NCBI RefSeq assembly: GCF_021155765.1
Contig: NC_060117.1
Location: 633,501-697,500 of the forward strand
Source of the DNA: Diprion similis
Lineage: Eukaryota; Arthropoda; Insecta; Hymenoptera; Diprionidae
Reading direction: 5' to 3'
Length of the DNA: 64,000 nt
A program made the position numbers and the translations under genes. How positions within the stretch are numbered: the first letter of the stretch is position 1; every line of letters starts with the position of its first letter. Shown piece after piece: positions 1-31,700 of this stretch. Below the pieces are notes generated by a model. The model ran no database searches. It was not told the origin of the DNA and saw only the letters and a program-made list of their open reading frames with translations.

Positions 1-243
1 GAGAATTTCAATTTCCAAACCACCTAAGTATCACTACGAATAGATGCTTGACGAATGTTGACAATTTACGTACTTTTCAAGGTTTATCGTGATTCACTTT
101 TTACATGCTTTAAATTTGGAGAATCTTACGGTGGGGTTCACAAGTATGAACTGGCAATGATTACCAATTGGTTCGTGTAGTTTTACGGATAAATGATCAA
201 CTTTCCGTTACCACATTATTATACTTATTTCTTTATCCTTTAG

Positions 244-2654
<2,411 letters not shown>

Positions 2655-2893
2655 TTAATTATGTCCCAAATTTACGCTGTCGCATTGACAAACCTCGTTT
2701 TTAGATAGTCTCTGTATGATGATGCGTACACACCTCTACAGGTTTATCATAGTGTTGCACATATATGTCACAGATTATCAACAACTTGCGTTGAGTGTTG
2801 TTACGTGTGTCCTGTAAGAGTGACTTTCAGGCACGTGTTATACGTACGTACATACAAATAGATTGTTAGTAGGAATTCTTTGCAAAGAATGTG

Positions 2894-2899
2894 AATAAA
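2894..2899 (+). promoter_or_regulatory. Poly(A) signal candidate for Miro (proximal)
   Basis: AATAAA lies 240 bp after the Miro stop codon. A second AATAAA follows at 3222-3227, with GT-rich sequence after it, so two alternative 3' ends are possible. Confidence 0.45.
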
Positions 2900-3221
2900 A
2901 TTATTTTTGCTTTACTGTTAAGCTGCGGAACTAAACTCAAGGTTGAATGACACAAATCTGTAAAGAATATATATGCATACATAGGTATGATGAATATCTT
3001 ATATTTATATGTAGGTGAAAAAAATATTTATTCATTACTTCTAGTTATCATTGAAAAATAAGAAGTTTCATTTGGAGAGTTATAGTGGCAATGATTCTTA
3101 GTCGTCTACGAGGATAGATTGATTCCCATGTAAGGTATAGTCATAGACATCATGTAACTCGTCTTCTGTGTGCTTTGCGTTGTTATATAAAAGCGTTGCA
3201 TCTAGAAATGACATTGAATGC

Positions 3222-3227
3222 AATAAA
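3222..3227 (+). promoter_or_regulatory. Poly(A) signal candidate for Miro (distal)
   Basis: AATAAA is followed within 25 bp by a TTGTG-containing stretch, the usual downstream element layout. It would give Miro a 3' UTR of about 590 bp. Confidence 0.45.
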
Positions 3228-4003
3228 GTTATAATTGTCAAATAATTTGTGCCCTACTGGGCTTGCACCGTACCTCTGTGAATGGTCAAAGATCGTCAAC
3301 AACTTATTTATTTGATTGTTCGCAAGCATAAGAGGGAATTGTACTGTTTTTCCTTATGGTCATATTCTGTAATTAAATTGACAATTAGAAGCAAGCCAAA
3401 TTTTGTAATTGAATTTTAGCCCTCCATATTTTTGCGATTTCTGAAGCCAAAATTTTTTCCTCGGAATCGTGCATGTTTCTTTTTTCGCCAATTAGACTCT
3501 CAGGAGTGCAAAAACGCCTTGGGCGTAAGGACCCATACTAGAATCCCAATTCAATAGTTCATGACCTATCGAAAATCAACGGGAAAGTGCCGAAAATTAC
3601 AATCTCATCAGCATGTCCTGCGTTGACGTATGCGGATCATTTGCGAATGACTGCCAATGAATGAACTGTTTACCAGATTTGCCGCTAGATGCAGTCAATG
3701 GGGGCATACGTGCTAATTCACAAATTGGTAGTGGTATTTCTACACTCGAATCGTGCGTCACAAGTGAAGTTAGTGCCGTAATGAATGAAACGCTACGAGT
3801 GCTAATTCAATTGGACGAACGACCTGGAGCCGGTGTACTCGGCGGGGGGGTACACGCCTGCGCAGGGATTCTCAGGCTTTCCGACATGCCATTCTGTGTG
3901 TTGGGAGGCCTCTTGAAGGAGCGTTAGGCGCAAGGCAGCTTTCGATGTGCTATAACTCGGAATTTCTCAATAATTAAGAATGGCATGCAGGAGAGGTGGA
4001 AAG

Positions 4004-4139
4004 GTGATAAATGAAGATTCTTTCTACATAATAACGGCATGAATATTGTACAAGCACGAATTTTCCACATCGTGATACATGAAGATTCTTTCTATATAAT
4101 TACGGCAGGAATATTCTACAAGCGAGTATTTTTCACATG
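4004..4139. repeat. Two-copy tandem duplication, 68-bp period
   Basis: Copies at 4004-4071 and 4072-4139 share GTGATA, then ATGAAGATTCTTTCTA, and a similar GAATATT...ACAAGC segment, with scattered substitutions. It is a short local duplication beside the large satellite and unrelated to it in sequence. Confidence 0.75.
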
Positions 4140-4619
4140 ATCATATCATACGATGTAATTGTACATGTAATGATAGCACATAAAATTATAATACATATGG
4201 TTATGCCGGACAAAATGACTCTATGCCTTTTATACCAAAGTGGAGAAGAATGATTCGGAAAAAGTATATTGAACACATCTACTATGTAATTTAGATTTTG
4301 AACAATTACCTATTGAATAAGGAAAATTGAATAGGTCAGCTGATGAAAAATCGATTAGAGAAACGGTTACGCTTGAATTTATGTATATCCGGAAGACGGA
4401 ACTAACTCTTCGTTTTTTTGTCTATGACATTTTGAGTTGAGGTTTGCGATGGGAATGTAAGCTATGCTGGCTGCAAACAGATGAATTATGCACCACTGGA
4501 GATTATAATGTAATGTCCGATATCCTTGTATTGTTCATGTGTAACTAAATTTGCGAATAAAAAAACATAACAATATCCCACACAAATTGTTCTACACATA
4601 ATTCATCTAATTTATACAT

Positions 4620-7600
4620 CTGGAAAATTGCAACGACTTTGAGAAATGCTGTAAATGGTTCGTTAGTGTCCTATTCCGACGTAATTTTGCGAGAAAAATC
4701 GAATTATCGCAGTCCCAATGCGCTGCGAGCAACACCTGTAAAGTTACAGCCGAAAAACTGCGGATTTTCATCGTCATTTCTCTGCTGCTGGTCCTACGCT
4801 ATTTTTCATGTGTTTTTTGAGTTCCTGGGCGTCCAATTAGTCTAAGAAGCGTCATAGTGATCGATTCCTAGACCAAAAAATTTTTGACCGAAAAAAATCG
4901 AAGGCTAACCCCTTTGCATTTTTGATGAAAATTTCGACGACTTTAAAAACTGCTGCAATTAATTCTTTAGAACACTATTCCGACGTAATTTTGCGAGAGA
5001 AATCGATTTATCGCAGTCCCAATGCGCTGCGAGCAACACCTGTGAAGTTACAGCCAAAAAACTGCAGATTTTCATCGTCATTTCTCTGCTGCTGGTCCTA
5101 CGCTATTTTTCATGTGTTTTTTGAGTTCCTGGGCGTCCAATCAGTCTAAGAAGCGTCATAGTAATCGATTCCTAGACCAAAAAATTTTTGGCCGAAAAAA
5201 ATCGAAGGCTAACCCCTTTGCATTTTTGATGAAAATTTCGACGACTTTAAAAACTGCTGCAATTATTTCTTTGGAACACTATTCCGACGTAATTCTGCGA
5301 AAGAAATCGATTTATCGCAGTCCCAATGCGCTGCGAGCAACACCTGTAAAGTTACAGCCGAAAAACTGCAGATTTTCATCGTCATTTCTCTGCTGCTGGT
5401 CCTACGCTATTTTTCATGTGTTTTTTGAGTTCCTGGGCGTCCAATCAGTCTAAGAAGCGTCATAGTAATCGATTCCTAGACCAAAAAATTTTTGGCCGAA
5501 AAAAATCGAAGGCTAACCCCTTTGCATTTTTGATGAAAATTTCGACGACTTTAAAAACTGCTGCAATTATTTCTTTAGAACACTATTCCGACGTAATTCT
5601 GCGAGAGAAATCGATTTATCGCAGTCCCAATGCGCTGCGAGCAACACCTGTAAAGTTACAGCCGAAAAACTGCAGAATTTCATCGTCATTTCTCTGCTGC
5701 TGGTCCTACGCTATTTTTCATGTGTTTTTTGAGTTCCTGGGCGTCCAATCAGTCTAAGAAGCGTCATAGTAATCGATTCCTAGACCAAAAAATTTTTGGC
5801 CGAAAAAAATCGAAGGCTAACCCCTTTGCATTTTTGATGAAAATTTCGACGACTTTAAAAACTGCTGCAATTAATTCTTTAGAACACTATTCCGACGTAA
5901 TTTTGCGAGAGAAATCGATTTATCGCAGTCCCAATGCGCTGCGAGCAACACCTGTAAAGTTACAGCCGAAAAACTGCAGATTTTCATCGTCATTTCTCTG
6001 CTGCTGGTCCTGCGCTATTTTTCATGTGTTTTTTGAGTTCCTGGGCGTCCAATCAGTCTAAGAAGCGTCATAGTAATCGATTCCTAGACCAAAAAATTTT
6101 TGGCCGAAAAAAATCAAAGGCTAACCCCTTTGCATTTTTGATGAAAATTTCGACGACTTTAAAAACTGCTGCAATTATTTCTTTAGAACACTATTCCGAC
6201 GTAATTTTGCGAGAGAAATCGATTTATCGCAGTCCCAATGCGCTGCGAGCAACACCTGTAAAGTTACAGCCGAAAAACTGCAGATTTTCATCGTCATTTC
6301 TCTGCTGCTGGTCCTGCGCTATTTTTCATGTGTTTTTTGAGTTCCTGGGCGTCCAATCAGTCTAAGAAGCGTCATAGTAATCGATTCCTAGACCAAAAAA
6401 TTTTTGGCCGAAAAAAATCGAAGGCTAACCCCTTTGCATTTTTGATGAAAATTTCGACGACTTTAAAAACTGCTGCAATTATTTCTTTAGAACACTATTC
6501 CGACGTAATTTTGCGAGAGAAATCGATTCATCGCAGTCCCAATGCGCTGCGAGCAACACCTGTAAAGTTACAGCCGAAAAACTGCAGATTTTCATCGTCA
6601 TTTCTCTGCTGCTGGTCCTACGCTATTTTTCATGTGTTTTTTGAGTTCCTGGGCGTCCAATCAGTCTAAGAAGCGTCATAGTAATCGATTCCTAGACCAA
6701 AAAATTTTTGGCCGAAAAAAATCGAAGGCTAACCCCTTTGCATTTTTGATGAAAATTTCGACGACTTTAAAAACTGCTGCAATTATTTCTTTAGAACACT
6801 ATTCCGACGTAATTCTGCGAGAGAAATCGATTTATCGCAGTCCCAATGCGCTGCGAGCAACACCTGTAAAGTTACAGCCGAAAAACTGCAGAATTTCATC
6901 GTCATTTCTCTGCTGCTGGTCCTACGCTATTTTTCATGTGTTTTTTGAGTTCCTGGGCGTCCAATCAGTCTAAGAAGCGTCATAGTAATCGATTCCTAGA
7001 CCAAAAAATTTTTGGCCGAAAAAAATCGAAGGCTAACCCCTTTGCATTTTTGATGAAAATTTCGACGACTTTAAAAACTGCTGCAATTATTTCTTTAGAA
7101 CACTATTCCGACGTAATTCTGCGAGAGAAATCGATTTATCGCAGTCCCAATGCGCTGCGAGCAACACCTGTAAAGTTACAGCCGAAAAACTGCAGATTTT
7201 CATCGTCATTTCTCTGCTGCTGGTCCTACGCTATTTTTCATGTGTTTTTTGAGTTCCTGGGCGTCCAATTAGTCTAAGAGGCGTCATAGTAATCGATTCC
7301 TAGACCAAAAAATTTTTGGCCGAAAAAAATCGAAGGCTAACCCCTTTGCATTTTTGATGAAATTTTCGACGACTTTAAGAACTGCTGCAAATAATTCTTT
7401 AGAACACTATTCCGACGTAATTTTGCGAGAGAAATCGATTTATCGCAGTCCCAATGCGCTGCGAGCAACACCTGTAAAGTTACAGCCGAAAAACTGCAGA
7501 TTTTCATCGTCATTTCTCTGCTGCTGGTCCTACGCTATTTTTCATGTGTTTTTTGAGTTCCTGGGCGTCCAATCAGTCTAAGAAGCGTCATAGTAATCGA

Positions 7601-10600
7601 TTCCTAGACCAAAAAATTTTTAGCCGAAAAAAATCGAAGGCTAACCCCTTTGCATTTTTGATGAAAATTTCGACGACTTTAAAAACTGCTGCATTTATTT
7701 CTTTAGAACACTATTCCGACGTAATTCTGCGAGAGAAATCGATTTATCGCAGTCCCAATGCGCTGCGAGCAACACCTGTAAAGTTACAGCCGAAAAACTG
7801 CAGATTTTCATCGTCATTTCTCTGCTGCTGGTCCTACGCTATTTTTCATGTGTTTTTTGAGTTCCTGGGCGTCCAATCAGTCTAAGAAGCGTCATAGTAA
7901 TCGATTCCTAGACCAAAAAATTTTTGGCCGAAAAAAATCGAAGGCTAACCCCTTTGCATTTTTGATGAAAATTTCGACGACTTTAAGAACTGCTGCAAAT
8001 AATTCTTTAGAACACTATTCCGACGTAATTTTGCGAGAGAAATCGATTTATCGCAGTCCCAATGCGCTGCGAGCAACACCTGTAAAGTTACAGCCGAAAA
8101 ACTGCAGATTTTCATCGTCATTTCTCTGCTGCTGGTCCTACGCTATTTTTCATGTGTTTTTTGAGTTCCTGGGCGTCCAATCAGTCTAAGAAGCGTCATA
8201 GTAATCGATTCCTAGACCAAAAAATTTTTGGCCGAAAAAAATCGAAGGCTAACCCCTTTGCATTTTTGATGAAAATTTCGACGACTTTAAAAACTGCTGC
8301 ATTTATTTCTTTAGAACACTATTCCGACGTAATTCTGCGAGAGAAATCGATTTATCGCAGTCCCAATGCGCTGCGAGCAACACCTGTAAAGTTACAGCCG
8401 AAAAACTGCAGATTTTCATCGTCATTTCTCTGCTGCTGGTCCTACGCTATTTTTCATGTGTTTTTTGAGTTCCTGGGCGTCCAATCAGTCTAAGAAGCGT
8501 CATAGTAATCGATTCCTAGACCAAAAAATTTTTGGCCGAAAAAAATCGAAGGCTAACCCCTTTGCATTTTTGATGAAAATTTCGACGACTTTAAGAACTG
8601 CTGCAAATAATTCTTTAGAACACTATTCCGACGTAATTTTGCGAGAGAAATCGATTTATCGCAGTCCCAATGCGCTGCGAGCAACACCTGTAAAGTTACA
8701 GCCGAAAAACTGCAGATTTTCATCGTCATTTCTCTGCTGCTGGTCCTACGCTATTTTTCATGTGTTTTTTGAGTTCCTGGGCGTCCAATCAGTCTAAGAA
8801 GCGTCATAGTAATCGATTCCTAGACCAAAAAATTTTTGGCCGAAAAAAATCGAAGGCTAACCCCTTTGCATTTTTGATGAAAATTTCGACGACTTTAAAA
8901 ACTGCTGCATTTATTTCTTTAGAACACTATTCCGACGTAATTCTGCGAGAGAAATCGATTTATCGCAGTCCCAATGCGCTGCGAGCAACACCTGTAAAGT
9001 TACAGCCGAAAAACTGCAGATTTTCATCGTCATTTCTCTGCTGCTGGTCCTACGCTATTTTTCATGTGTTTTTTGAGTTCCTGGGCGTCCAATCAGTCTA
9101 AGAAGCGTCATAGTAATCGATTCCTAGACCAAAAAATTTTTGGCCGAAAAAAATCGAAGGCTAACCCCTTTGCATTTTTGATGAAAATTTCGACGACTTT
9201 AAAAACTGCTGCAATTATTTCTTTAGAACACTATTCCGACGTAATTTTGCGAGAGAAATCGATTTATCGCAGTCCCAATGCGCTGCGAGCAACACCTGTA
9301 AAGTTACAGCCGAAAAACTGCAGATTTTCATCGTCATTTCTCTGCTGCTGGTCCTACGCTATTTTTCATGTGTTTTTTGAGTTCCTGGGCGTCCAATCAG
9401 TCTAAGAAGCGTCATAGTAATCGATTCCTAGACCAAAAAATTTTTGGCCGAAAAAAATCGAAGGCTAACCCCTTTGCATTTTTGATGAAAATTTCGACGA
9501 CTTTAAAAACTGCTGCAATTATTTCTTTGGAACACTATTCCGACGTAATTCTGCGAAAGAAATCGATTTATCGCAGTCCCAATGCGCTGCGAGCAACACC
9601 TGTAAAGTTACAGCCGAAAAACTGCAGATTTTCATCGTCATTTCTCTGCTGCTGGTCCTACGCTATTTTTCATGTGTTTTTTGAGTTCCTGGGCGTCCAA
9701 TCAGTCTAAGAAGCGTCATAGTAATCGATTCCTAGACCAAAAAATTTTTGGCCGAAAAAAATCGAAGGCTAACCCCTTTGCATTTTTGATGAAAATTTCG
9801 ACGACTTTAAAAACTGCTGCAATTATTTCTTTAGAACACTATTCCGACGTAATTTTGCGAGAGAAATCGATTTATCGCAGTCCCAATGCGCTGCGAGCAA
9901 CACCTGTAAAGTTACAGCCGAAAAACTGCAGATTTTCATCGTCATTTCTCTGCTGCTGGTCCTACGCTATTTTTCATGTGTTTTTTGAGTTCCTGGGCGT
10001 CCAATCAGTCTAAGAAGCGTCATAGTAATCGATTCCTAGACCAAAAAATTTTTGGCCGAAAAAAATCGAAGGCTAACCCCTTTGCATTTTTGATGAAAAT
10101 TTCGACGACTTTAAAAACTGCTGCAATTATTTCTTTAGAACACTATTCCGACGTAATTCTGCGAGAGAAATCGATTTATCGCAGTCCCAATGCGCTGCGA
10201 GCAACACCTGTAAAGTTACAGCCGAAAAACTGCAGATTTTCATCGTCATTTCTCTGCTGCTGGTCCTACGCTATTTTTCATGTGTTTTTTGAGTTCCTGG
10301 GCGTCCAATTAGTCTAAGAAGCGTCATAGTAATCGATTCCTGGACCAAAAAATTTTTGGCTGAAAAAAATCGAAGGCTAACCCCTTTGCATTTTTGATGA
10401 AATTTTCGACGACTTTAAGAACTGCTGCAATTAATTCTTTAGAACACTATTCCGACGTAATTTTGCGAGAGAAATCGATTTATTGCAGTCCCAATGCGCT
10501 GCGAGCAACACCTGTAAAGTTACAGCCGAAAAACTGCAGATTTTCATCGTCATTTCTCTGCTGCTGGTCCTACGCTATTTTTCATGTGTTTTTTGTGTTC

Positions 10601-12640
10601 CTGGGCGTCCAATTAGTCTAAGAAGCGTCATAGTAATCGATTCCTAGACCAAAAAATTTTTGGCCGAAAAAAATCGAAGGCTAACCCCTTTGCATTTTTG
10701 ATGAAATTTTCGACGACTTCAAAAACTGCTGCAATTAATTCTTTCGAACACTATTCCGACGTAATTTTGCGAGAGAAATCGATTTATCGCAGTCCCAATG
10801 CGCTGCGAGCAACACCTGTAAAGTTACAGCCGAAAAACTGCAGATTTTCATCGTCATTTCTCTGCTGCTGGTCCTACGCTATTTTTCATGTGTTTTTTGA
10901 GTTCCTGGGCGTCCAATTAGTCTAAGAAGCGTCATAGTAATCGATTCCTAGACCAAAAAATTTTTGGCCGAAAAAAATCGAAGGCTAACCCCTTTGCACT
11001 TTTGATGAAATTTTCGACGACTTCAAAAACTGCTGCAATTAATTCTTTCGAACACTATTCCGACGTAATTTTGCGAGAGAAATCGATTTATCGCAGTCCC
11101 AATGCGCTGCGAGCAACACCTGTAAAGTTACAGCCGAAAAACTGCAGATTTTCATCGTCATTTCTCTGCTGCTGGTCCTACGCTATTTTTCATGTGTTTT
11201 TTGAGTTCCTGGGCGTCCAATCAGTCTAAGAAGCGTCATAGTAATCGATTCCTAGACCAAAAAATTTTTGGCCGAAAAAAATCGAAGGCTAACCCCTTTG
11301 CATTTTTGATGAAAATTTCGATGACTTTAAAAACTGCTGCAATTAATTCTTTAGAACACTATTCCGACGTAATTTTGCGAGAGAAATCGATTTATCGCAG
11401 TCCCAATGCGCTGCGAGCAACACCTGTAAAGTTACAGCCGAAAAACTGCAGATTTTCATCGTCTTTTCTCTGCTGCTGGTCCTACGCTATTTTTCATGTG
11501 TTTTTTGAGTTCCTGGGCGTCCAATTAGTCTAAGAAGCGTCATAGTAATCGATTCCTAGACCAAAAAATTTTTGGCCGAAAAAAATCGAAGGCTAACCCC
11601 TTTGCATTTTTGATGAAAATTTCGACGACTTTAAAAACTGCTGCAATTAATTCTTTAGAACACTATTTCGACGTAATTTTGCGAGAGAAATCGATTTATC
11701 GCAGTCCCAATGCGCTGCGAGCAACACCTGTAAAGTTACAGCCGAAAAACTGCAGATTTTCATCGTCTTTTCTCTGCTGCTGGTCCTACGCTATTTTTTA
11801 TGTGTTTTTTGAGTTCCTGGGCGTCCAATTAGTCTAAGAGGCGTCATAGTAATCGATTCCTAGACCAAAAAATTTTTGGCCGAAAAAAATCGAAGGCTAA
11901 CCCCTTTGCATTTTTGATGAAATTTTCGACGACTTTAAGAACTGCTGCAAATAATTCTTTAGAACACTATTCCGACGTAATTTTGCGAGAGAAATCGATT
12001 TATCGCAGTCCCAATGCGCTGCGAGCAACACCTGTAAAGTTACAGCCGAAAAACTGCAGATTTTCATCGTCATTTCTCTGCTGCTGGTCCTACGCTATTT
12101 TTCATGTGTTTTTTGAGTTCCTGGGCGTCCAATTCGTCTAAGAAGCGTCATAGTAATCGATTCCTGGACCAAAAAATTTTTGGCCGAAAAAAATCGAAGG
12201 CTAACCCCTTTGCATTTTTGATGAAATTTTTGACGACTTCAAGAACTGCTGCAATTAATTCTTTAGAACACTATTCCGACGTAATTTTGCGAGAGAAATT
12301 GATTTATCGCAGTCCCAATGCGCTGCGAGCAACACCTGTAAAGTTACAGCCGAAAAACTGCAGATTTTCATCGTCATTTCTCTGCTGCTGGTCCTACGCT
12401 ATTTTTCATGTGTTTTTTGAGTTCCTGGGGTTCCAATTAGCCAGAAAAGGGTTATACAAATCGATTTGGAGACCAAAAATTTCCAGCTTCAAAAATCTCA
12501 TCAAAAGTAAGGCTAACCCCTTTGGATTTTTTGCCAAAATTTCGACGACTTCGAAAAATTGTAAAATCAATTCTTTCATGCACTATTCCGACGTAATTGC
12601 GCGAGAGAAATCGATTAATTGCTATCCCCGTAGAATTCAG
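4620..12640. repeat. Tandem satellite array, 304-bp monomer, about 26 copies
   Basis: A head-to-tail array in which the same landmark (the TAA after GTCCAATCAGTC or GTCCAATTAGTC) recurs at exactly 304-bp steps from 4845 to 12141: 24 intervals with no net indel. The first copy (4620-4845) is diverged. The core (about 5,150-12,440) differs between monomers by only a few substitutions each. The last partial copy (12,441-12,640) is badly decayed and contains an insertion. Each monomer has an A-tract/T-tract palindrome CCAAAAAATTTTTGG and a short inverted repeat CTGTAAAGTTACAG. Most monomers carry an open frame of 113 codons that runs 38 bp into the next copy. Because 304 is not a multiple of three, the frame rotates each unit, so this is not a repeat protein. 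Diverged edges with a homogeneous core are the known mark of unequal exchange. The sequence family is not one I recognise. Confidence 0.97.
7278..9101. repeat. Higher-order (dimeric, 608-bp) block within the satellite
   Basis: Six consecutive 304-bp monomers alternate between two subtypes. One has TTTAAGAACTGCTGCAAATA and ATTTTGCGAG; the other has TTTAAAAACTGCTGCATTTA and ATTCTGCGAG. The pattern ABABAB gives three 608-bp dimers. Type A recurs at 11838-12141. Confidence 0.88.
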
Positions 12641-13015
12641 CGAATCGGAGAAATTTCGGCCGGCAATTGCTTTTCGTATCAGGAGAACATCTGAGCCGAG
12701 GAGGTCTTCTCAAAACAGGGACTGATCGATTGACTGCTTATGATATTGATGCTGCGTGTCTAAATGCATGCCTGCTTGTTTGAGAAGCACTGATCTCTAC
12801 TATACACGATCGCTTACTCACATGTTACATCTACTTCGAATTAAGCAAATTGCAGAAATTTCAGTCGAAAATTGCTCCTGGTATCAGGAGAATATCTGAG
12901 CTGAGGAGGTCGCTCAGAAACAGAGATTGAGTGGTACACACGATGCTGTGTGTCCAGCGATGAGTACGTGTCTGCCTGTCCAAAAGGGCATGCGTCTCAC
13001 ATGTAAGTATGGTTG
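12641..13015. repeat. Two decayed copies of a second ~200-bp repeat at the satellite edge
   Basis: A segment near 12,645-12,735 recurs near 12,843-12,930 at roughly 75% identity; both copies contain GTATCAGGAGAA and ATCTGAGC(C/T)GAGGAGGTC. The following GATGCTG(C/T)GTGTC and GCATGC(C/G)T motifs also recur. The period is near 195-205 bp with small indels. It appears unrelated to the 304-bp monomer apart from adjacency. Confidence 0.6.
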
Positions 13016-14019
13016 CCCCAAATAAGGCGCCTTTAAATTGAGCAGGCACGGCCATCATCGCATAGGTAAATTTTGCATAAATTTGAAACGGCATGCAACT
13101 GGGACAGGAAAGTGATCACTCCCAAATTTTATGCGTAATCAAATATTTATTCAGTTTCTGCACACATTCTTCCACCAAATATCTCTTCGGACATAGTATT
13201 ATGTTACATTCCATATTAATGTTTAGTATTGGCGTTGACTGAGGATATGTACCAATTCACTTCAGTTACTATAGTATCACGATTTTTTAACCAAATTTTT
13301 CACTCGTCAGAAGTGATCTGCAGAATTCACTGATCTATATTCCAATCAATCATTACGATCAGGTCAATAGTCAGGAATTTGAAAAACACATCTACAACAT
13401 AATAGGGCCAACAGCTGAGAAATTATAACGAAAATGGTTGATTTCCTGGTTGCAACTCACGATCCATTTTCTACAGTGACTCTAGATTATGCGCAATTAT
13501 TTCTTGGACGCAAAAATGAATATCATACACGCCACGCACGGGAATAAATATTGAATATGATCAGTACAATGAATGTCTTTTTGGACCACCGTCCATGATA
13601 TAAAGATGTCGTAGTTTTTTTTTCCTAATCGAAGCCGACCATACTCATGTATCTATAATCTATCTAATAATCGTCGTATGCTGCAAAGATGGTTCATCAT
13701 CTGCACGCACCCTGTCCAATCCGAGAATACTAAAAATACTTATATACCACTATAGACTAAATACCAAAACAATATTTATTCGCTTGGTTTGTTTCTTCGT
13801 ATATTTTTACGAGCCTCCAATCTCATAGAAAACAATTCAAATTCTATTATAGCACTTGAAGTTACCAAACAATTTCTAAAATAAATGTCTCGTACGTATT
13901 TCTATTTTATGGAAATATTGAAAATTTCAAATCCGAGTCTGTAGGCAGGAGTAGAATCTGTTCCCCAGGAGTCATTGATGAGCCTTGATGCTGTTTCAAC
14001 TCGCTCTTCAACATGTTCA
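13016..14019. other. Spacer, nothing recognised
   Basis: AT-rich single-copy-looking DNA with no long open frame, no tRNA-like fold that I could see and no repeat. Confidence 0.4.
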
Positions 14020-14296
14020 TCACATGTCAACAACCGTTCGCAACAGGAATATGATTGATATTGCGTTTTCTGATTTTCTTTCTGCGGTAAAATGATGGTA
14101 AAGGTCAAAGCACTGCAATAGTGTATGATACTTTGTGAGAAACTGATACGAATTTTCAATCTTACCAGTCTTAGGTAATAGTAGTTTTTCCTGGTTCAGC
14201 TTGGACATTGCCATGACGGTTTCTATAGTACAAGGTTCGCATCGGTACGACTTCAAGAACATGAGGCTGCAGTGAGGTGTCGATTTCTGTAGCAAG
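14020..14296 (-). CDS. Possible two-exon gene fragment, unrecognised
   Basis: Reading the minus strand, an acceptor (TTTCGCAG) precedes an exon at 14296-14166 ending at a good donor (G|GTAAG). A pyrimidine-rich tract then ends at an acceptor before 14081, and the frame runs to TGA at 14020. The spliced piece includes HCSLMFLKSYRCEPCTIETV and ends ERKSENAISIIFLLRTVVDM. The 84-bp intron is itself open and a multiple of three, so the frame also reads straight through. I do not recognise the protein and could not find further exons with confidence. It may be the 3' end of a gene, a pseudogene piece, or chance. Confidence 0.2.
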
Positions 14297-14665
14297 CTGC
14301 GAAATCATGAATTCAGAAGCAAACCTGAGTTATTTATATAGTTGTGATTTTTAGATACAGCGTCCGATTACAAATTTGGAGATGAGGATTAGAATATGTT
14401 AATGTTACAGCCAAAATTTAACAAAATTTATTTGTGATGTATATATACTGTATCTGTACCTGTATTTTATTCGAAGCTAGACTTTGAATTTTCCCCGCTA
14501 GATTTTGTAGGTATTCTATCTTTACACTATAAGCTTGCTACGATTCACATCTATCAATGCGTGCGTTAAGGCATTAACACCGACTGCATAGAGTAAGGCG
14601 TTTACGCACGCGTCCGGCCGGCTTGTGGTGCCCTCGAGGATGTTTCAGTGGAAGCAGGGTATCCC

Positions 14666-14746
14666 ATGAAAACGACGACAGGTCGAGCTACGAGTGCCGG
14701 AGTTCGAACGAACAAGGATAGCGAGCTTCAGGATTTCGAAGATGAG
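14666..14746 (+). CDS. Candidate isolated first coding exon, unrecognised
   Basis: An ATG opens 27 codons without a stop, ending DSELQDFEDE at a possible donor GAG|GTCAGAG. Local GC content is higher than in the flanks. It is on the same strand as the downstream myosin, whose 5' coding exon has not been located. Linking the two would be speculation. Confidence 0.15.
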
Positions 14747-15925
14747 GTCAGAGGAACTGAAGCCTTCTGCGTTTAGTCGGGTAGTATTGTGGCGGATGGT
14801 CGGACATGCGCGATTCTTACGGGAGTGGACCTCGGGTGTGTGATTAAGGAAAGCAACAATGCGATATTCAAGTCACGTATTGCAAAGCACAATGTGATTA
14901 CTGGTGAAATGATCATGTATTTTTCCTATTTTCTAAAGTACGTGTAACACAGAGAATATTGTAATAGTTTCACGCGTTGCGATATATATCAACGACGACC
15001 GGTGATTTGTATACGTTAAAACAAGATCTACAAAAACGTATATATCGACGATATAATCGGAATTGAATTTAATGGTGAATATTTTCCACCCACCTACGAC
15101 ACCAGCATGGTTGCTAAGCATTTTACTCAGGGTGAGTTAACTTATTATTCTTCACGCATCCCCATTTTACAATCGTGAATATTCGGAATCATTCCAGAAA
15201 AACTAGACCGACTACTGCATTCATCGTCGACGAAGGAGTATTAATTTTCATACGCACATTCAACGCGACTCACACCCCTAACAAGTTCACCCTCACTTCT
15301 TCAAGTTTGATTTTCGGCACTCTTGCTCATTGTCAGCAGCACGCTACAATCCGTTCGACTGCCAACTGTCAAGGGTGGATCATCTCTCCACGCCGCATCA
15401 CATATACATTGCGTTGTTTCACTCATACCTTAATACACATGTCAAACACACTTTTCTACGCTGATGCGATTTCCATCCTCCGAATGATTCGGAGTTTCGT
15501 CAAATACTCCACCCACTCGCGATCAGTGACTGCCACAGAAAAAAAAAGAAGAAAATAAGCATACAATATTCATTTTCGATATTTTCCGTAAATTTTCCTT
15601 GCACACTTTCTTTATCATTAACATTTTTCTCTTTGTCTTTATTTAAAAAAAATCATCAGTCAAACTAATGACAATTAATAAAAAACATAGAGTACACGCA
15701 TATCATTTATTTCTTATAATACGATATTTTAATATTTGTTCGAAATACAGCCGGTTACCTGCATGTCTGATACAGTAATCCTCTTTTCCTAAATGTCGCC
15801 TAAACGCATACACAGTCACGACTATTCCTGTAGTTTTGTGTGTGTGTGTAGATATATATATATATATGTATATTCGGTAGAAACAGCTGTCAACGCTGAG
15901 CCCAATACCCCTCTTTTCCGCCCCG

Positions 15926-15960
<35 letters not shown>
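15926..15960. repeat. (TA)n microsatellite
   Basis: A nearly pure TA dinucleotide run of about 35 bp. Confidence 0.85.
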
Positions 15961-16616
15961 CTCTATATATACACTTAGATACTGTATAAAGGTATACCAT
16001 GCGAACCCTGCACGAGACCATAAGGACACACGTTACCTTACGACACAAAAAACCGTTTCCTTTTTTCATTTTTATCTTTTTCTCGTGTCACCCCATTTAC
16101 ACATTTTGTCTGACCCAGTTATAAACTATATACACCATACACAACCACATCGCGAACGCATCTAATTAATTATGTTTTCGTTTCATTTCCTTTCCTTGTC
16201 ATATTTCATTTAGGTAGTTAATTAACACGCGATTATATGCTTTGGTTTGTCTGGAGGATAGAAAAGTTGGAAAAATTATCAACATTCGTTTCATTTATAA
16301 TTTTCTGTGGTATTTATTCTACCGTAATGTGGATAGGAAACAAAGAATACGAACGGACAAACGTGAAGGGGGTTTGATCTACTTCGGGCGGAAAGAATTA
16401 TTCATCTCTGATAACTCGCGCGCTATGCGCGTGTGTATAGCGTTCGACTCACACAATCCGGCATTGCTTCATCGTCGTCATGACTTTCCCATTCATTGGC
16501 GAAGAGCGGGACTCAAACTTCTTGCGGGACTGCATGAGTTATACCTGCGAGTTAAGTGAGAGCGTGACTCACACCGTGCAGGGCACTCACGAAATTCCGG
16601 GGATTCCCCTTCTGGG

Positions 16617-28700: not shown

Positions 28701-31700
28701 GCGTCAGGCGACGAACAACCCGAATCCGGAATGGGCGGAGCGGGTTTGGCTGCTTCTCTGCCTGGCAATCGTCGCGTTCCAGCCGAGCAAACTCCTCTAC
28801 AAGTACTTCGTGTCTTTTCTCAAGAAGAACCTTGCCCTGGAGGGTAAACTCCGTCAGTACGTTCAATGGTGCGTCGACAACTGTAAGAACACCAAAGTGT
28901 CCTGCAGACAGTTTCCTCCGTCGACGGTTGAGATCGCGGCGATGAGGAGACTCGGTACGATCGTTTGTCGCTTCTTCTTCCTCGATGGCAGGACGAAGGC
29001 TATCGACGTACACCCGACGGACACGGCGGCCGACGCGGCCGCGAAATTGGCCGAGAAACTTGGACTGAGGTCGCTCGACGGATGGGCGATATACCAAAGT
29101 AGGCCCGACGGCGAGGAGCACGTCCGAGCCCACGATTACCTCTACGACGTGATAGCGGCCTGGGAAGTGTGAGTTGTAACATCGCGTAGCGTCGAAACGT
29201 GTTCGCAAGGATTTATTTTTACCGTAGTGAATTTATTTCCGCAGGAAGCAGTGCAAGCTGAACACGACCCAGTCGACATTCTCGACTCTGAGACGCAGCA
29301 ACAATCCGACACTTGGAAGCGGCGAGAATCGGTTTGTATTCAAACGAAGATTATTCAGAAACAGTCGCGAGCTGTCCCAGGATCCCGTCGAGGTCAACAT
29401 GCTCTACGCTCAGGCGGTCTACAACGTCGTCAAGGTAACATCGAGGCACAGGTCGACTTTCACCGATACGCGATTAGCGAGACTAATGTCGAATCCTTGT
29501 GTTTTCAGTGCGACGATTTCCCGGTGTCCGAGAAAGTCGCGCTTCAACTGGCCGGGCTGCAGGCCCAGGTTGCACTCGGTGACCCGAAGGACAACGATCG
29601 GCTCGACTACTACGCGGAAGTTGACAGTTTCCTTCCTTACCGCATAAGCAGAGCTCGAGGCGACGACGTCTGGGTGCCGATCATAGCCCAAGCCCACATG
29701 CAGTACGGAGCTGGGCGTGCCGAGTTGGCCGCGAAAGTGTTGTACCTCTCTTGCGTGATGCAGTATCCGCTCTACGGTACGACGATGTTCAACGTGACGT
29801 ACCGGGGCTATTGGTCCTACGGTAATCAGCTGATACTGGGAATAAACTGCGACGGTCTGATGCTCATAAAGCCGGACGACAAGTTCGTTTTGTCGGAGTA
29901 CAGATACCAGGACGTCGAGAGCATAATGCTGGACCCCAGCGACTCATTCATCACGCTGTCGCTGCTGAGGCACAACCCGGACAGCTCGCACAAGTGTTTC
30001 GTGTTCGAGACGAAGCAGAAGAACGAGATCGGTAGTCTGATCGTCAGCTACTGTCCAGCCCTGGCTGGCTGGATAACGGAGAATGAGGCGCCGGTGAAAA
30101 AGGTCAAGGGGATAACGAACGAGGATAGAGTACGGCTCTATCACAACCTGGTCAACTGTCGGAGGACGTTGGTAGACTCGGACGCACTTCGAAAGCCGCA
30201 AGACATGGGCGGCGGGTTCCTCAGAAACACCTTGCGCCGCCTCTCCAAGCACAGGATAGAGAAGCTGCGCCAGGAACACGGCAACGCGATGGACCACGGG
30301 GAGACGTACAAGGGCTTTCCGTACGCCTACTGGGCGTTCGGCAGGCAGCCCATTCCACAAAGCCTGACGAAGCTCCCGGAAGCCGAGGAGCAGATCGCGC
30401 TGAGCGTCTTTCAACTGATCCTGACCTACGCCGGACTCGGACAGAACGGAGACGCGGTTCGGAGCGTCGAGGACGAGCACGTGAACTTGATCCAGACGAT
30501 AATGGAACGCTGTATGCGCAAGGAGTGCCTCCTCGGCGAGCTCTACCTACAACTGATAAAGCAGACCACCGACCACCCCGATCCAAACAGCAGAGTAAAC
30601 CTGAGACACTGGGCGCTCCTCTCCTTGGCTTGCTCGGTCATTCTCCCGCCACAGAAGATAATAAGAAAGTACTTAATGGCCCATTTGAAAAGATGCGCCA
30701 GCGACTACGTAACGGAGGAGGGAAAGTACGCGAGATTTTCCGAGAAATGTTTGAACAAGACACAGGGGACGAGGAGGAGGCAGTGGCCGCCCAGCAGAGA
30801 GGAAATCATGTGCACCATAAACAGGCGGCCTATTTACGCTAGGTTCCATTTCATGGACGGTCAATATCACGCGGTTGAATTTCACCCGTCGTCGACCGCG
30901 AGGGACGTGATGGAAATAATCAAGGCGAAGATTGGACTCGAGGAAACGGCCATGGGTGAGTAGAGATTCAATTGTAAAGGAAATCGGGACGAGCCGGTAC
31001 CGTAACGAACGTTGTTCTCACCTTGCAGGCTACGCGATTTACGAAAAACTTGGTTCGTCCGAACGCTCCCTCGTTCCGGAGGAGAAGATAGCCGACGTAA
31101 TGTCAAAATGGGAGCGTTACAGAACAGCCAGTGCGACGCACACCCAACAGTCCCAGCAATCCCAGAGAAAGCACACGCATCATTTGTTCCTCTTCAAAAA
31201 GCACCTGTTTCTCGATCAGTACATGAACCTTGACGATCCTGTGGAGAAGGAGCTCCTCTATCACCAGGTTTTGCACGATTTGCGCGCGGATAGATTCCCG
31301 ATCACGGACAAAGAGGCGGTGAGTAAATGGCGCTGATTAATCGTCACCATATTCGACATCGTTGAAATGTACGGGGCTGTAACGCTTAGTAACGTTAACG
31401 TTTAGAACGACGTTGAGAGAGTTAGTTTTCAAAATATAAGTGTGTTTTGTTTAATTATAAGTAACGATTTTTCTCAAACACGCATCGTTAGAGTAACGTC
31501 ACGTTACTATAACTTCATCCTCGTTAAATTGTGCCGTACTCTTACCTTTGCACGTGTTTCCATTAATCCCAGATGATGCTGACGGCGCTGCAAGCCCAAC
31601 TGGAACTGGGCGACTGCGAGGAGGGTTTGTCCGGTGGTCAGGAGTACCGGGGAATAGCTGGACACTGCTTGCCGGCTCGACTAGTTCCGAATCTGAGTCC

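What the first reader, a model, noticed from the sequence alone, without database searches (positions are those of the whole stretch)
4620..12640. Indel-free 304-bp satellite array between ordinary genes
About 26 monomers keep exactly 304-bp spacing over 24 intervals while accumulating substitutions. Strict length conservation with sequence drift suggests either recent amplification or a length constraint (for example nucleosome phasing or protein binding). The array sits in a gene-bearing region, 2 kb past Miro, not in an obvious heterochromatic block. I do not recognise the monomer.
Basis: partly seen in the sequence, partly recalled or inferred. Interest (0 to 1): 0.7.

Follow-up and report, generated by a model that had tools for sequence, protein, structure and literature searches.

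The report
Private block of a dispersed satellite
The repeat is a small, self-contained version of a satellite DNA that occurs tens of thousands of times in this genome, and its even spacing is typical of the sampled arrays of that family, in which length changes are much rarer than in worn-out copies outside arrays.

Summary
Confirmed: 26 head-to-tail monomers at 4671-12616, all 25 start-to-start intervals exactly 304 bp, 35 distinct substitutions and no indel in the 25 intact monomers. A 26-bp core occurs at 30,186 places in the 269-Mb assembly, in 304- or 312-bp arrays on at least eight contigs, some beside genes. The window's array is private: its 70-mer signature gives 25 places, all here. 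It split off before the dominant 304-bp type, whose consensus is identical in eight sampled blocks on three contigs. Exact whole-monomer duplications and more diverged ends point to local homologous exchange.

Even spacing is a family trait: 17 other sampled blocks show 639 substitutions to 8 indels; 24 decayed copies show 6.3 substitutions per indel, or 4.4 by distinct events. Youth alone cannot give that. One fixed length is not needed: 312- and 191-bp arrays are also regular, though one 312-bp array carries spread -3 and +1 variants. I favour in-register recombination disfavouring length variants. In kind this is ordinary dispersed satellite DNA; raw reads must confirm the deficit.

The parts
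4671..12270 (+). 25 complete 304-bp satellite monomers, private subfamily, no indels
12271..12578 (+). 26th monomer: about the first half is array type, then it switches to a decayed monomer that resembles the 312-bp class by eye
   Evidence: its best-scoring consensus was C7, a 304-bp type, with three gaps of 5, 7 and 10 bp
4623..4670 (+). decayed end of an older monomer at the left edge of the array
12579..12628 (+). start of another decayed monomer at the right edge
12631..12933 (+). degenerate two-copy relic (spacing about 205) of a second dispersed satellite of 191-bp period, with no significant similarity to the 304-bp monomer
13372..13423 (-). short old fragment of the 304-bp family, opposite strand
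   Evidence: E 2.8e-6
244..483 (+). reading frame holding an exon of Miro (mitochondrial Rho GTPase)
   Evidence: 4c0j, E 1.6e-18; no Pfam match at E 0.01
698..895 (+). next Miro exon; nearest coding sequence identified to the left of the array
   Evidence: 4c0j, E 1.2e-21; no Pfam match at E 0.01

Best explanation
The block is a short array, in a gene-bearing region, of the genome's large dispersed satellite family. It probably grew at a site that already held old monomers of the same family, remnants of which flank it on both sides (position shown; growth there inferred). It then evolved on its own: whole monomers, and pairs of monomers, were duplicated and replaced by homologous in-register exchange (unequal crossing-over, gene conversion or sister-chromatid slippage), which spread new substitutions through the middle and left older states mostly at the ends (pattern shown, process inferred). 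Because exchange needs alignment over homology, it moves whole repeats and keeps the period; copies that gain or lose bases are poor partners and are usually lost or overwritten (inferred from the indel deficit). I infer no host function for the array; the even spacing is a by-product of how tandem arrays are maintained.
For: Family-wide: 30,186 places within 2 mismatches of a 26-bp core, 0 for the reversed control; 304-type and 312-type diagnostic strings give 14,112 and 5,796 places. Private subfamily: 70-mer signature (up to 3 mismatches) 25 of 25 places in this array; 19 consensus differences from the dominant type, 8 derived here (two of them still segregating), 3 derived in the dominant type and 8 unresolved with two 312-bp consensuses as outgroup. 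Local exchange: 972-bp exact repeat two monomers apart, reached in 1 of 1000 shuffles of monomer order; divergence rises towards the ends (Spearman 0.47, p 0.017); ancestral T168 sits towards the ends (p 0.01). Little shared flank: 12 array edges, one 64-bp match between different arrays. Indel deficit: 639 substitutions to 8 indels, counted as distinct within each of 17 other blocks, against 865:138 in 24 relics (Fisher p 2e-22) or 463:105 as distinct events. In simulation a true 8:1 reads as 6.2:1, a true 80:1 as 26:1 and substitutions alone as 40:1, so alignment bias does not explain the relic value. A 191-bp satellite gives 50:1, 31:2 and 15:0 in three places.
Against: Plain gene conversion should spread an indel as readily as a substitution, so an extra bias against length variants has to be assumed; and such spread does happen: on C1:117-145 kb 13 of 46 intervals of a 312-type array deviate (-3 eight times, +1 four times, -1 once). 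Ancestral A292 towards the ends is only suggestive (p 0.058), and monomers 9, 11 and 13 carry ancestral states in the middle. The census drops monomers over 6% from their block consensus (15 of 484), intervals outside 250-360 bp (not counted) and indels inside the 34-bp anchor, all of which could hide indels. The same variant may be counted in several blocks. Relics may descend from older subfamilies of other lengths, which would inflate their indel count. Read correction could remove small indels.
Confidence: 0.72

Rival explanations
1. Length constraint by selection: the repeat period sets a chromatin register (two nucleosomes per monomer, or a bound protein), and length variants are selected against.
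For: Strong indel deficit inside sampled arrays. Conservation along the monomer is uneven: positions 1-20, 51-60 and 231-270 are kept best, 171-180 and 211-230 least (permutation p 0.0005 with 18 diverged monomers from all loci, 0.0035 with 13 from the loci picked by full-length BLAST). 304 is close to twice a nucleosome-sized length.
Against: 304- and 312-bp classes coexist and a 191-bp satellite is also regular; recurrent -3 and +1 variants persist in a 312-type array on C1. No significant 10-bp dinucleotide periodicity (p 0.16, 0.22, 0.22, 0.57 for four consensuses) and no CENP-B-box-like site beyond chance. No half-length substructure (identity 0.29 at a shift of 152, none above 0.32).
Confidence: 0.12
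2. The array is part of a composite or mobile unit (as with Helentron-borne satellites) and was spread with it.
For: An identical consensus on C3, C9 and C12 needs some way of spreading. Of six right-hand edges seen, three (window, L030, L031) are followed by a 191-bp satellite on the same strand. L030 and L031 share 1065 bp at 90% there, and the spacer between the arrays has 17 matches of 300 or more query bases, itself included, on C4, C2 and C7.
Against: Twelve array edges (8 left, 4 right; L029-L033 not included) share only one 64-bp match between different arrays, L023 and L026, opposite strands. Three of the six right edges (L011, L016, L020) lack the 191-bp partner within the 1.5-5 kb held. 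Termini and target-site duplications were not searched for.
Confidence: 0.07
3. Very recent amplification only: the array is young, so it has few changes of any kind, and the absence of indels is chance.
For: Mean pairwise divergence is only 1.9%. Given the ratio in other blocks, zero indels is expected (P 0.65).
Against: Age does not change the ratio of indels to substitutions. Against the relic ratio, zero of 35 has P 0.006 or 0.0008, and the deficit holds in the other sampled blocks together.
Confidence: 0.03
4. Assembly artefact: copies were collapsed or single-base indels removed during read correction.
For: Raw reads are not available here; some long-read assemblers treat small indels as noise (recalled, not from a call).
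Against: Monomers differ by substitutions shared in blocks, unlike a collapse. Small indels are retained in some arrays: 303-bp monomers in C9a and C3c, -3 and +1 variants on C1.
Confidence: 0.1

Closest known systems
Tribolium castaneum TCAST satellite, euchromatic copies near genes (PMC3411249, start of abstract in a search listing; PMC10048060, passages)
   Same: An abundant insect satellite with copies in gene-bearing regions.
   Different: TCAST is mainly pericentromeric; chromosomal placement of this family was not determined. No sequence comparison was made.
Drosophila 1.688 (359-bp) satellite, euchromatic arrays (PMC7642928, start of abstract in a search listing; PMC10048060, passages)
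   Same: Monomer of a few hundred bp with arrays near genes.
   Different: Euchromatic 1.688 arrays are mostly of up to six repeats (PMC10048060 passage); the sampled arrays here run from about 5 monomers (L030) to beyond the 10-kb stretches fetched (for example L012, L013). No sequence comparison was made.
Helentron-carried satellite-like arrays of Crassostrea gigas (PMC7492417, title and start of abstract in a search listing)
   Same: Many dispersed arrays.
   Different: No shared element ends around the 12 edges compared; the composite on C4 leaves the question open for part of the family.

Membership tests
Satellite DNA (dispersed) | head-to-tail tandem repeats of one monomer in long arrays | tested here: met
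Satellite DNA (dispersed) | many arrays of the same monomer at different genomic places | tested here: met
   listings are capped, at least eight contigs seen
Satellite DNA (dispersed) | no long open reading frame through the array | tested here: met
   304 is not a multiple of 3; longest stop-to-stop frames are 135 aa inside the array and 218 aa at its right edge. No Rfam match in window 1-16000. Transcription not tested.
Satellite DNA (dispersed) | concerted evolution: monomers within an array more alike than between diverged arrays, less homogenised ends | tested here: met
Transposon-borne tandem repeat | common sequence flanking the arrays | tested here: inconclusive
   12 edges compared, one 64-bp match; but L030 and L031 share 1065 bp and 3 of 6 right edges carry a 191-bp satellite
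Transposon-borne tandem repeat | element termini, target-site duplications or transposase | not tested
   flanks were only compared with each other and partly scanned with Pfam
Centromeric satellite | association with CENP-A or CenH3 chromatin | not testable with these tools
   needs ChIP or CUT&RUN
Centromeric satellite | CENP-B box (a feature of some, not all) | tested here: not met
   best 6-7 of 9 core positions in seven consensus or monomer sequences, not above chance (motif recalled)
A previously catalogued satellite | sequence match to a published monomer | not testable with these tools
   no repeat library (Dfam, Repbase) at hand; text searches only

The most novel reading that the evidence does not exclude
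Tandem arrays in this genome disfavour length variants as such: the exchange that homogenises repeats carries substitutions freely but rejects or repairs most indels, so that satellite classes of 304, 312 and 191 bp keep their periods, with roughly a tenth of the indel load of the same sequence outside arrays; a variant that slips through, as on C1, can still spread. This would make 'length checking' a general, measurable property of satellite homogenisation rather than a constraint of one monomer.
Probability: 0.33. Interest if true: 0.55.

Novelty: new member of a known kind. Interest (0 to 1): 0.35.

Why it matters
It goes to the question of what keeps a satellite period exact. The regularity belongs to array life in this family, not to this locus. 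Relics and arrays of the same sequence in one genome give an internal control that separates mutation from array-level filtering, so selection on chromatin register and recombination-based exclusion can be tested against each other. The private array beside widely shared ones also shows that homogenisation between chromosomes does not reach every copy.

Tried and rejected
Rfam search of window 1-16000: nothing up to E 1. Viral contigs scan with the 26-mer: no match. CENP-B box, 10-bp periodicity and half-length substructure: nothing above chance or notable. Shared transposon-like flanks: one 64-bp match among 12 edges, with the C4 composite as an open exception. The 191-bp satellite as a diverged relative of the 304-bp one: no significant similarity. 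A decayed 39-bp repeat at about window 13010 was seen by eye only; BLAST at E 0.1 did not report it. Genome-wide period counts with gapped patterns were not possible. Word searches of the open-access library for this monomer, for sawfly or hymenopteran satellites and for indel deficits gave no description that I recognised as this repeat (searches returned no paper); I saw listings, and passages of PMC4053949, PMC10048060 and PMC10542623. I guessed from memory that the species might be a diprionid sawfly and searched on that; nothing here tests it, and the species stays unidentified.
Full report
What is there. The array runs from 4671 to 12616. Twenty-five monomers differ from their consensus by 0-9 substitutions; the 26th matches for about half its length and then switches to a diverged monomer. 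All 25 start-to-start spacings are 304, also when measured from six other anchors within 4671-12420, 24 or 25 intervals each. The 25 intact monomers have 34 variable sites, 35 distinct variants (25 transitions, 10 transversions), mean pairwise divergence 1.9% and no indel.

Where it belongs. The window lies at C13:633501-697500 of a 269-Mb assembly in 60 contigs. A 26-bp core of the monomer, allowing 2 mismatches, occurs 16,113 times forward and 14,073 times reverse; the reversed control gives 0. At about 304 bp each this is some 9 Mb, or 3.4% of the assembly (arithmetic). Strings diagnostic of the dominant 304-bp type and of one 312-bp type give 14,112 and 5,796 places at up to 3 mismatches. 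Listings are capped at about 100 places, so contig-wide maps were not possible; copies were seen on C1, C2, C3, C4, C7, C9, C12 and C13. The two types are about 84-86% alike over most of the monomer and differ by a net 8 bp in an A-rich stretch. I fetched 27 further stretches of this genome; 24 of them hold 304/312-type copies, L028 and L034 none, and L035 only decayed ones.

Gene context. The reading frames at 244-483 and 698-895 match Miro in the PDB, though not in Pfam at E 0.01. A myosin head and MyTH4/FERM protein lies to the right (24.5-31 kb). Other arrays also lie near genes: I tested eight long frames from 7 of 17 other flanks with Pfam, and five frames in four loci have domains (TTC21-like, lactate/malate dehydrogenase twice, RZ zinc finger, alkaline phosphatase). 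The arrays were picked by similarity to the window's monomer or to its core, so they are not a random sample.

A private subfamily. A 70-mer signature of the window's type, with up to 3 mismatches, is found 25 times in the genome, all in this array. Of 413 full-length BLAST copies in L009-L028 and the window, 402 are 304 bp, nine 303, one 305 and one 312 (partial copies were dropped). Eight blocks (C12, C3a, C3b, C9a, C9b, C9d, C9e, C9f) share a consensus with no difference at all and lie a median 0.7-1.8% apart, about as close as monomers within one block (0.3-2.0%); C9d-f may be parts of one array. C3c differs at 1 site, C9g (2 monomers only) at 2, C7 at 9, C9c (2 monomers) at 10 and the window at 19. 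With two 312-bp consensuses as outgroup, 8 of the 19 are derived in the window (two of these, at 168 and 292, still segregate), 3 are derived in the dominant type and 8 are unresolved. I infer that the window's type split off before the dominant type spread.

Signs of local exchange. Monomers 11 and 13 are identical, as are 12 and 14, and 3 and 17. The longest exact in-register repeat is 972 bp at a distance of two monomers; 1 of 1000 shuffles of the monomer order reaches this. Divergence from the array consensus rises with distance from the centre (Spearman 0.47, p 0.017). The ancestral T168 sits towards the ends (p 0.01); for A292 the trend is weaker (p 0.058), and monomers 9, 11 and 13 are exceptions in the middle. 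Both array edges pass into decayed monomers of the same family. The review PMC10048060 (passages) reports that homogenisation is less efficient at array ends.

The even spacing. In 17 other sampled blocks, 469 of 484 monomers were counted (15 dropped as more than 6% from their block's consensus), with 639 substitutions and 8 indels, each distinct within its block. Variants shared between blocks count more than once, intervals outside 250-360 bp were left out uncounted, and indels inside the 34-bp anchor are missed. The six-anchor check on 22 stretches (edges left out) finds nearly all intervals at 304; 303, 305, 301 or 300 occur in eight stretches, and some multiples of 304 where an anchor was too diverged (L019). 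As a control I took relic copies with no close relative in the sample: 24 of 31 were long enough, with 865 substitutions to 138 indels, 6.3:1, or 463 to 105 as distinct events with indels binned by position. In simulation a true ratio of 8:1 is read as 6.2:1, 80:1 as 26:1 and a substitution-only history as 40:1, so alignment error explains little of the relic value. Binned by divergence the values are 112, 37, 50 and 7.3 substitutions per indel for under 2%, 2-6%, 6-12% and over 12%; the 6-12% bin is dominated by one subfamily (L019) counted many times. The deficit is thus roughly 10- to 18-fold. The 191-bp satellite shows 50:1, 31:2 and 15:0 in three places (first anchor). Two 312-bp blocks give 36:0 and 6:0. 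Against relic proportions the window's zero of 35 has P 0.006 or 0.0008, and against the other blocks 0.65.

A result against strictness. From listed places of the diagnostic strings, all 86 intervals of a 304-type array at C1:4.308-4.338 Mb are whole multiples of 304, and 46 of 47 on C2:18.81 Mb are multiples of 312 (one is 12 short). In a 312-type array at C1:4.949-4.972 Mb 43 of 46 fit, and at C1:117-145 kb only 33 of 46: eight are 3 short, four 1 long, one 1 short. These look like a few length changes that have spread with larger repeat units, so length variants are not always excluded.

Meaning. Youth alone changes the number of changes, not their proportions. A rule for one length is unlikely, because several periods are kept and -3 and +1 variants persist on C1. 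The common factor is being in a tandem array. I take homology-dependent, in-register exchange with loss of most length variants as the most likely cause. Selection on chromatin register stays open: conservation along the monomer is uneven, although no nucleosome-type periodicity was found. An assembly effect is the main technical rival.

A wider pattern, partly followed. Just right of the array lies a relic of a second satellite, period 191, whose listed matches are on C13, C1 and C4. Right-hand edges were seen for six arrays: window, L030 and L031 carry the 191-bp satellite, L011, L016 and L020 do not within 1.5-5 kb. At the two C4 loci the order is 304/312 array, spacer, 191 array, and they share 1065 bp at 90%. 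In L031 and L035 the 191-bp blocks alternate with blocks of a 39-bp repeat. The spacer query has 41 matches, 17 of them over 300 or more query bases (7 on C4, 9 on C2, 1 on C7). Each of the seven C4 copies has 39-bp repeats downstream on the same strand at about 1 to 18 kb (coordinates; the listing is truncated, and what lies between was not read except in L031 and L035).

Noticed in passing
window 12631-12933; C13, C1, C4: A second dispersed satellite of 191-bp period; the window holds a degenerate two-copy relic beside the 304-bp array, and its best matches are on the same contig.
   Followed up: partly
L030, L031, L035 (C4): Composite satellite neighbourhoods: 304/312 array, a spacer with 17 long matches on C4, C2 and C7, then alternating 191-bp and 39-bp arrays, all on one strand. 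The 39-bp unit contains an inverted repeat (TGCCTA...TAGGCA, seen by eye).
   Followed up: partly
C1:117-145 kb: A 312-type array with recurrent -3 and +1 length variants (13 of 46 listed intervals deviate), suggesting a higher-order repeat that spread length changes.
   Followed up: partly
L019 (C9:4.22 Mb): Another homogeneous 304-bp subfamily, about 10% from the dominant type, possibly a second private array.
   Followed up: no
304-bp monomer, positions 1-20, 51-60 and 231-270 against 171-180 and 211-230: Uneven conservation among diverged monomers (permutation p 0.0005 and 0.0035).
   Followed up: partly
L021, L023 and relics in L019, L031, L033: Edge monomers with spacing 341-342 or gaps of about 16-28 bp hint at an older, longer monomer class.
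   Followed up: no
window 4004-4138: A 68-bp sequence duplicated in tandem (86% matches) 0.5 kb left of the array.
   Followed up: no
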